DNA from: Xiphias gladius
Taxonomy: Eukaryota; Chordata; Actinopteri; Istiophoriformes; Xiphiidae
Direction of reading: 5' to 3'
Assembly: GCF_016859285.1 (NCBI RefSeq)
Contig: NC_053402.1
Span: 6,667,031-6,731,030, forward strand
Length of the DNA: 64,000 nucleotides
Under the pieces are notes generated by a model. That model worked only from the letters and a program-made list of their open reading frames with translations. It had not been told where the DNA came from and did not search any database. This document shows positions 12,401 through 15,400 of this stretch, in pieces; position 1 is the stretch's first letter; each line of letters begins with the position of its first letter. A program made the position numbers and the translations under genes.

Positions 12401-15400
12401 TCTGTATGGCCCTGTTTTGTCTGTCATCTTTTTCTGTTACTGGGTCTCAGAGGTACAGAATTGTCAGAGAGCCTATTTTTATCAGCGTTTTCCTATTCTA
12501 CACTCAGACTCAGGTGATGAGGTTTCTTTTAATTTATCTCTCCGCCTGTATCCTCTTGTTTTAAACATGCTTATTTCCACCATGAATCCTTTCTGTTGTC
12601 CTTTCTCCTAAAATTATCTTTCCAAAGATGCCAGGAAATGTTGTCAGTTGCTTCATTGTCTTTAGCCAGGTCTGTGTTCAGTAGCGAAATCTTCTGGTCA
12701 TCTTAGCACTTGTTACTCTGTCATTGAACTCTCCTTCTCTCCCTCTGTGTAATAGTGTTGTTTGGGGACTCCTGATGTTGATCATGGGTACTGCAACGAT
12801 GGGTATATTCTGCATGGGTTTGTTTTGTTTGTTTGTTTGTTTTTATTTTATTTATTTATTTATTCATTTATTTATTTTTGTTTTTCTATACAAGGCCACT
12901 GCAAGCACCAACGTATGTCACCACCCTGATACACATACATATTTAATTGAACCATCAGAGTTCTCTCTCTGAAAACTACAAACTGGCAGTGTTAAAAGTT
13001 GACAAACCCTCTTCACTCATTGCACTGAATATTTGTTTTGTAATGGTTTGTAATCCTTCCACACTTCACTGGCTTTTTGTGACTCCCCTTTGTCATCCTA
13101 CTCCTGTTTTCCCTCCACATTCACTCTGTGTTTGTGTGTGTTGATGTTTCACTGGTTCCATCTCTACTTTCTTCTGGTTTGTGTTTACTAAGAGGAAGTG
13201 GAGAGACAATGGTCATATTCATCCTCCTTTGTGACATGCATTTGGTTTGAGTTTGCCTTGTTAAATTATTGAATTAAACCCCACAGACTTCTTACATAAT
13301 GTCATTCCTCTTTCTTTCTTTTTTTTTTTTTTTTTCCCCTCCTCTTTCAGTGGACCGGATTGTTGGTTTGGATAAGGTGTCTGGGATGTCCGAGATGCCC
13401 GGTGCCTTTAAGACCCGTAAGGGCATGTTCCGCACAGTGGGCCAGCTGTACAAGGAGCAGCTTTCCAAGCTCATGGCCACTTTGAGGAACACAAACCCAA
13501 ACTTTGTTCGCTGCATCATCCCCAACCATGAGAAAAAGGTATAGGAAAAATAATGGCATCTATTAGGGCTTTTTCACCATAGAAGCTTTCCCATGGGACC
13601 AGAAAACCTTTTGAGGAATTCAGGAACTAAACCTGCTTTTCAAATTAAGTAACCATGAACTAAAATTAGTTCCTATTCGATAGTTCCAGGTGCTGGGTGA
13701 AAAAAAAGGTTAAAAAAAGTTCTGGGTGAAGTAGTTTCTAACTGTTAAGTAACCTTTATAAGGACTGATCATTACTTATTGGTCTACTACAGACACCATG
13801 GCAGGTACAACTTGTGTACCACTTCACAAAATAAGGAAGTACTCAGGTATCCAGGTGGGATGAAAGATGGACATTTCCAATTGTTTATAAATGTTAGAAA
13901 TAAAGCTAAGAGGAGGGAGCAGAGGGTGATTAAGCTAGAGAGTGGATAAGAATGAGAGAATGGCAGTAGAACCAAGCCAGTGTTACATGCCAGTTACGTT
14001 CTAAAGCAGAAATAAATAACCATCAAACACTCAGAGCGTCACCGTGGATAGATATGCATTGGAGTTTTCAATCTCTATTTTTACCTCTGCATGTCGCCGC
14101 CTCAATCATAAATTACATCAAACTCAAATATCAGGAAACATTGTCACGCAACAGTAAATACGTGTAACAACAGAATCGGACTGTTTCCTGATGTGCAAAA
14201 CATACGTGTCAAACACCACCATTATTTTGAATCCATTGTCACTCTAATTTGCCTTATTTTCAAAGGCCTTTTGATGTGGTGGAAACAAAAACAGGAATTC
14301 GCAAAAGAGACTTTTAGTTCCAGAGTTTAGTTCCTCTAGTTCCAAAGTTCCTGGAAACTATTGGTTGCAAAAGGAATATAAGCCACTTTGAAGAAAAGTA
14401 CCATTTGTTTCTCTGTTTTGCCAAATTACTGATCAGCAAATGTTCACCTTCCTCAGGCTGGTAAACTGGACCCCCACCTGGTTCTGGACCAGCTGAGGTG
14501 TAATGGTGTGCTGGAGGGGATCCGTATCTGCAGACAGGGCTTCCCCAACCGCATTGTCTTCCAGGAGTTCAGACAGAGGTAACAGAATAATAATACTGTT
14601 GCCACTGCATCTTATAGTTGTCATGCAGGATTGTGTGTAAGAAAACCCAAAATCCTATCATCTGCCCCTCCCCCAGGTATGAAATCCTCACTCCCAATGC
14701 CATCCCCAAGGGCTTCATGGATGGAAAGCAAGCCTGTGTGCTAATGGTAAGGGGTCTACAAAATTCTAGCTAAGCTCCACAATATTTAGTGCTAGAAAAT
14801 ACAAACAAATCACTCTATAGTGTGACTGATCAGTGCATTTCCTGTCCTTTCAGATCAAAAGCCTGGAGCTGGATCCGAACTTGTACCGCATAGGCCAGAG
14901 TAAAGTTTTCTTCAGAGCAGGTGTCCTCGCTCACCTGGAGGAGGAGAGGGACATGAAGATCACAGACATCATCATCAGTTTCCAGGCCTGGTGCAGAGGC
15001 TATGTGGCCCGCAAGTAAGACGAGACAATCACCACATTCTTTGACTCTGCTGGTATCCGGATCCTTTTCAGTAGCTGCTGAAAAAACAGTGTGGACCATA
15101 ATTTGAATCTTTCTGATAATTTGTTCCTAAAAATAACAAAAACATTTGAGCATACTCAACACTCAGATTTGAACAAGACTTTTTCTGTATCTCAACCTTT
15201 ATTGCTGAGGTTTGTTTCTATAAAAAAAAAAAAAATGACCCTGGTGAACTTGTTAATATGCAGCTGAATCAAGGGAAATAACTTGTTTATTGATATATAA
15301 CATAAGGGTATTTCTTGTCCTAAAGTTTGTTGCATTGAATTGCATGGTAATATGAAATGTAATTGTTTGAGTCTGTCTAATATTGCTTTGCAGGGCTTTT

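What the first reader, a model, noticed from the sequence alone, without database searches (positions are those of the whole stretch)
12451..12513. B2-like loop-2 cassette exon inside a MYH9-type gene
A 63-nt open exon candidate with AG/GT borders lies in the intron that interrupts loop 2. It is in the right phase and encodes 21 residues beginning [11 protein letters not shown]. The neuronal B2 insert of MYH10, from memory, also has 21 residues, sits at the same junction and begins EIQNIQRA. Four independent agreements (length, phase, site, residues) suggest an alternative exon older than the MYH9/MYH10 split and retained in this fish. Loop 2 contacts actin, so inclusion would alter motor kinetics or regulation by light-chain phosphorylation.
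Basis: partly seen in the sequence, partly recalled or inferred. Interest (0 to 1): 0.85.

Follow-up and report, generated by a model that had tools for sequence, protein, structure and literature searches.

The report
Fish version of myosin A2 exon
The 63-base exon is very probably real: it looks like the fish counterpart of a known optional exon of the mammalian MYH9 motor-protein gene whose insert stops the motor, so the find is sound but mostly already explained.

Summary
Window 12451-12513 is a 63-nt, AG/GT-bounded, in-phase open exon in the loop-2 intron of a MYH9 gene. Spliced in, it adds [21 protein letters not shown] between ...FVSELWKD and VDRIVGLD. It is best read as the orthologue of the mammalian MYH9 "A2" exon (NM IIA2; PMC10480317, PMC13158602): same gene, site, length and phase, and 15 of 21 residues identical to the published mouse insert. 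Searching the 690-Mb genome with the mouse insert returned this place alone. In mouse, A2 is included mainly in brain at low level, abolishes motility, and is promoted by RbFox at a weak donor site. I infer the same brake role here; no RNA was available. The closest relative, though, is A2, not B2. The second myh9 copy lacks the exon (its intron is 340 nt). A side find is a 21-nt loop-1 microexon candidate shared by both myh9 copies. Novelty is limited: a new member of a known kind.

The parts
12099..12213 (+). constitutive exon ending in loop 2 ([38 protein letters not shown] + G)
   Evidence: donor ATG|GTGAGT
12214..13350 (+). loop-2 intron (1137 nt) that holds the cassette exon
12449..12450 (+). 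3' splice site AG, preceded by a pyrimidine-rich stretch (74% C/T over 19 nt)
12451..12513 (+). A2-type cassette exon, 63 nt, phase 1-1, [21 protein letters not shown]
12514..12519 (+). 5' splice site GTGATG, no G at +5 (mouse A2: GTGACT)
12811..12816 (+). TGCATG, canonical RbFox-type motif 298 nt downstream of the exon; 21.5% of shuffles of the downstream intron have one by chance
13351..13538 (+). constitutive exon downstream of loop 2 ([63 protein letters not shown])
8095..8115 (+). side find: 21-nt, phase-0 loop-1 microexon candidate (NSSILSH); the second myh9 copy has GSAVLSH at the same site

Best explanation
The exon is the orthologue of the mammalian MYH9 A2 exon: an optional 63-nt exon that inserts 21 residues in loop 2, the actin-contacting surface loop of the nonmuscle myosin IIA motor. 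Most transcripts should skip it. In brain (perhaps also muscle) RbFox-class splicing factors would promote its inclusion, giving a heavy chain that still forms filaments and holds actin but barely cycles, and so brakes the filaments it joins. Shown here: site, phase, length, open frame, likeness to mouse A2 and to this genome's B2, and absence from the second myh9 copy. Inferred from the mouse papers: tissue, RbFox control and loss of motor activity.
For: Exact in-phase AG/GT exon. The gene is MYH9: the loop-2 region scores Myosin-9 297 bits > Myosin-10 281 > MYH11 up to 258 > MYH14 248, a 307-aa motor stretch gives the same order, and a tail exon also scores Myosin-9 first. 15/21 identity to the published mouse insert, whose exon likewise starts at the second base of a GAG codon. 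One genome-wide match each for the fish and mouse inserts. myh10 has the matching 63-nt B2. The donor lacks a +5 G, as mouse A2 does. NM IIA2 function and RbFox control in mouse are published.
Against: No transcript evidence was available. The mouse-insert E-value genome-wide is only 0.0012 for so short a query. With my crude donor score the exon (3.1) is weaker than the exon just upstream (6.0) but stronger than the one just downstream (1.0) and than 9 of the 15 roughly placed donors of the gene, so 'weak donor' is not shown. The TGCATG could be chance, and the mouse paper reports no such motif there. Loop-2 inserts do not all brake: a review passage says longer loop-2 isoforms can have higher catalytic activity and that the MYH14 C2 form is constitutively active (PMC11335295). 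No second fish species could be examined.
Confidence: 0.93

Rival explanations
1. A B2 exon proper, i.e. the gene is a myh10 or the exon was copied from myh10.
For: Same length, phase, site and shared residues: 8 of 21 identical to this genome's B2.
Against: Gene scores as MYH9 in three stretches; the insert is 15/21 identical to mouse A2; myh10 is a separate gene with its own B2; the window and myh10 loop-2 introns are not alike beyond chance (10 of 200 shuffles reach the score).
Confidence: 0.02
2. A dead relic: the exon was functional in the ancestor but is no longer spliced in this fish.
For: No RNA evidence; the other myh9 copy lacks the exon.
Against: Open frame, both splice sites, exact length and 15/21 residues kept since the fish-mammal split, whereas unconstrained intron would be unrecognisable (inference).
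Confidence: 0.04
3. Chance open block in an intron.
For: About one shuffle in ten has some passing block (106 of 1000); with a looser tract threshold 3 of 43 blocks of the real intron pass.
Against: Only 2 of 1000 shuffles have one of 63 nt, matching mouse A2 at 1 and 2 residues; the observed match is 15/21.
Confidence: 0.01

Closest known systems
MYH9 A2 exon / NM IIA2 (Das 2023, PMC10480317; Mallick 2026, PMC13158602)
   Same: Gene type, loop-2 site, 63 nt, start at the second base of a GAG codon, 21 residues with 15 identical, AG acceptor, donor GTGA without +5 G.
   Different: Six residues differ; donor GTGATG instead of GTGACT, so the proposed mouse RbFox site GUGACU is altered; a canonical TGCATG lies 298 nt downstream, which the paper says mouse lacks; the gene is one of two copies and the other lacks the exon.
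MYH10 B2 exon / NM IIB2
   Same: Site, phase and 63 nt (length also published); shared residues; present in this genome's myh10 as DIQTFQRASFYDNVSGLHEAP.
   Different: Other gene; only 8/21 identical. No mammalian B2 sequence was fetched.
MYH14 C2 exon / NM IIC2
   Same: Optional exon at the same loop-2 site; published as 99 nt.
   Different: Length and sequence. A 69-nt candidate in the third NM-II gene here (L018) may be a relative, but that gene scores MYH10 first and MYH14 last of the four, so its name is open.

Membership tests
MYH9 A2 exon | lies in a MYH9 gene | tested here: met
   Myosin-9 best in head and tail stretches
MYH9 A2 exon | cassette position in the loop-2 intron | tested here: met
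MYH9 A2 exon | 63 nt, starts at second base of a GAG codon | tested here: met
   mouse feature read
MYH9 A2 exon | insert sequence | tested here: met
   15 of 21 identical to mouse; sole genome-wide match of the mouse insert
MYH9 A2 exon | weak 5' splice site | tested here: inconclusive
   lacks +5 G like mouse, but by a crude score 9 of 15 roughly placed donors of the gene are lower; MaxEntScan not available
MYH9 A2 exon | inclusion mainly in brain, RbFox-dependent | not testable with these tools
   no RNA; TGCATG at 12811 is only suggestive
MYH9 A2 exon | insert abolishes actin-activated ATPase and motility | not testable with these tools
   shown for mouse only
MYH10 B2 exon | lies in a MYH10 gene | tested here: not met
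   the myh10 gene is at C3:7403000-7412900
MYH10 B2 exon | sequence closer to B2 than to A2 | tested here: not met
   8/21 to this genome's B2 against 15/21 to mouse A2

The most novel reading that the evidence does not exclude
The loop-2 brake exon is an ancestral feature of vertebrate nonmuscle myosin II (A2, B2 and a third relative are all in this one genome). After the fish-specific duplication one myh9 copy alone kept the motor-off isoform while its sister became brake-less. Control in fish uses a canonical UGCAUG enhancer instead of the unusual donor-site RbFox contact proposed for mouse. Both fish myh9 copies also carry a 7-residue loop-1 microexon (A1), a variant not detected in mouse MYH9.
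Probability: 0.3. Interest if true: 0.5.

Novelty: new member of a known kind. Interest (0 to 1): 0.33.

Why it matters
It extends a recently characterised mammalian 'motor-off' isoform to a fish genome, implying more than 400 million years of conservation (divergence time recalled) and so real function for an isoform seen at only about 15% (brain) and 5% (muscle) in mouse. Fish would give a clean test: two myh9 copies, one with and one without the exon. It also supports descent of A2 and B2 from one ancestral exon.

Tried and rejected
Nucleotide similarity between the window loop-2 intron and the myh10 loop-2 intron: not beyond chance (10 of 200 shuffles reach it), so A2-B2 homology rests on site, phase, length and protein identity. 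Weak-donor test with a frequency table recalled from memory: inconclusive. RbFox motif: one TGCATG, 21.5% of shuffles have at least one. C2 search in L018: 0 of 50 candidates passed the first thresholds; with looser ones 2 appeared, one of them the 69-nt B2-like block; L018 also holds 89 N. Solved structures: with the insert left in, the best chains aligned on either side of it and the two alignments shown do not cover it. Li, Lalwani and Mhatre 2008 on MYH9 splice variants is not held; I saw it only in the reference lists of reviews. The ten species aligned in PMC13158602 are not named in the text I read and figures are not held, so a fish may be among them. No structure was predicted and no tree was built.

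Full report
What is there. Window 12451-12513 is a 63-nt block bounded by AG and GT inside the 1137-nt intron between exons 12099-12213 and 13351-13538. The upstream exon ends one base into a codon; with that G the block reads [21 protein letters not shown] without a stop and hands over in frame to VDRIVGLD. Skipping it also keeps frame. In sequence terms it is a cassette exon.

Is it chance? Of 43 open, in-phase AG...GT blocks of 27-159 nt in the intron, one is 63 nt and it alone passes my pyrimidine-tract and donor thresholds. Those thresholds were my choice, the donor frequencies are recalled and the exon's donor (3.1) sits just over the cut; with a tract of at least 50% C/T, 3 of 43 pass. 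In 1000 dinucleotide shuffles 106 had any passing block and 2 had a 63-nt one. The decisive point is homology. The mouse A2 insert printed in PMC10480317 (passage seen) is identical at 15 of 21 positions. Among 221,266 frames of the window and five loci the next best are two at 8 of 21, one of which is this genome's own B2 exon. Over the whole genome the mouse insert gives one match, this exon, E = 0.0012, 71% identity, and the fish insert gives itself only. Those two searches scored one first-look candidate each and did not report B2, so a diverged further copy could be missed.

Which gene. The loop-2 region scores Myosin-9 first (297 bits), then Myosin-10 (281), MYH11 (up to 258) and MYH14 (248). 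A 307-aa motor stretch gives the same order, and a tail exon scores Myosin-9 77 against 66 for Myosin-10. Six places in the genome, the window included, match the downstream exon at E <= 1e-8. The window gene is one of two MYH9 types (the other is L015, Myosin-9 first). L016 is MYH10. L018 scores MYH10 over MYH9 over MYH11 over MYH14, so its name is open. L017 and L019 look smooth-muscle-type to me by their residues (judged from recall, not searched further).

Family of exons. In the myh10 loop-2 intron 1 of 65 candidates passes both thresholds; it is also 63 nt and in the same phase, DIQTFQRASFYDNVSGLHEAP: this is B2. It is 8/21 identical to the window exon, with matches at 13, 14 and 9 of 21 first, second and third codon positions. 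L018 has, under looser thresholds, a 69-nt block DIQTLPRVYFFDSYATLQANGSD with a poor donor. It is 8/21 identical to B2 but only 5/21 to either A2; among 260,618 frames the B2 query's best non-self hits are the window exon and this block, 8/21 each. The second myh9 copy has a 340-nt loop-2 intron with 0 candidates (also 0 with loosened thresholds). The two smooth-type genes have introns of 102 and 121 nt with 1 and 0 candidates, none passing. The simplest history is one ancestral loop-2 exon before the MYH9/MYH10 split, kept here in myh10 and one myh9 and lost in the other. Against it, the nucleotide similarity of the window and myh10 introns is not significant (10 of 200 shuffles reach it).

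How it most likely works (inferred from mouse). In PMC10480317 (abstract, Identification and Discussion sections and passages read) A2 appears at about 15% in mouse brain and 5% in muscle RNA, protein was detected in brain and not in skeletal muscle, and the inserted motor has very low actin-activated ATPase and no motility, yet holds actin, forms filaments and slows uninserted NM IIA. PMC13158602 (abstract, sections 4-8 and 16 and passages) finds a weak donor (GTGACT) and RbFox3-promoted inclusion, and states that no UGCAUG was found across the introns and the A2 exon. Here the donor is GTGATG, again without G at +5, and one TGCATG lies 298 nt downstream, as expected of an RbFox enhancer but present by chance in 21.5% of shuffles. 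By my crude score the donor is not unusually weak for this gene: 9 of 15 roughly placed donors score lower. A review passage (PMC11335295) says that longer loop-2 isoforms can be more active and that the MYH14 C2 form is constitutively active, so braking is not a general rule for loop-2 inserts; it is shown for mouse A2 and B2.

What is already known. NM IIA2 is published for mouse and human. Reviews mention MYH9 loop-1 and loop-2 variants (PMC11335295 and PMC7566000, passages); the first cites a 2008 paper I could not read. In the zebrafish myh9 paper PMC11708221 a term search gave 0 uses of 'splice' and of 'loop 2'. My ten searches showed no title on this exon in fish, but searches listed only part of their hits (20 of 33, 9 of 11, 10 of 32), the ten species aligned in PMC13158602 are unnamed in its text, and annotation databases were not searched.

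Side find. In the loop-1 introns of both myh9 copies, between KKDQ and GELEKQ, lies a 21-nt phase-0 block (window 8095-8115 NSSILSH; L015 1606-1626 GSAVLSH), each with CAG acceptor and CAT|GTGAGT donor. The best alignment of the two introns is centred on it (E = 5e-6, next 0.74), and 0 of 200 shuffles reach its score. Against: in an ungapped 25-nt scan the block only ties with at least four others at 19/25, though at 40 nt it leads 28 to 25; a 51-nt form with the same donor (8065-8115) also passes in the window, and a third block (8253-8291) under looser cuts. Mouse MYH9 showed no loop-1 variant. This candidate A1 exon deserves its own RNA check.

Verdict. What is added is its presence in a fish genome, its absence from one of two myh9 copies, and the loop-1 side find.

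Noticed in passing
window 8095-8115 (+); L015 1606-1626: 21-nt phase-0 loop-1 microexon candidate (NSSILSH / GSAVLSH) shared by the two myh9 copies, with the same donor CAT|GTGAGT; mouse MYH9 showed no loop-1 variant in PMC10480317.
   Followed up: partly
L018 6243-6311 (C22:18199042-18199110 +): 69-nt in-phase loop-2 block DIQTLPRVYFFDSYATLQANGSD with a poor donor, resembling B2; possible C2 counterpart in a third NM-II gene.
   Followed up: partly
L017 404-430 (C15): 27-nt loop-1 candidate QQSGSQFAY before GTGAGT in a smooth-muscle-type gene, reminiscent of the mammalian 7-residue smooth-muscle loop-1 insert (its letters recalled).
   Followed up: no
L001 (C4:469568-471601): Myosin head matched over Pfam positions 2-679 of 679 without stops in a 1940-aa open frame: a class-II-like myosin gene with no introns through the head.
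   Followed up: no
window 30599-31143 (+) and 58102-63941 (-): Neighbouring genes: two mitochondrial-carrier stretches on + and HOOK-type coiled-coil stretches on - (two over Pfam's cut-off, one below it); 8 stretches scanned.
   Followed up: no
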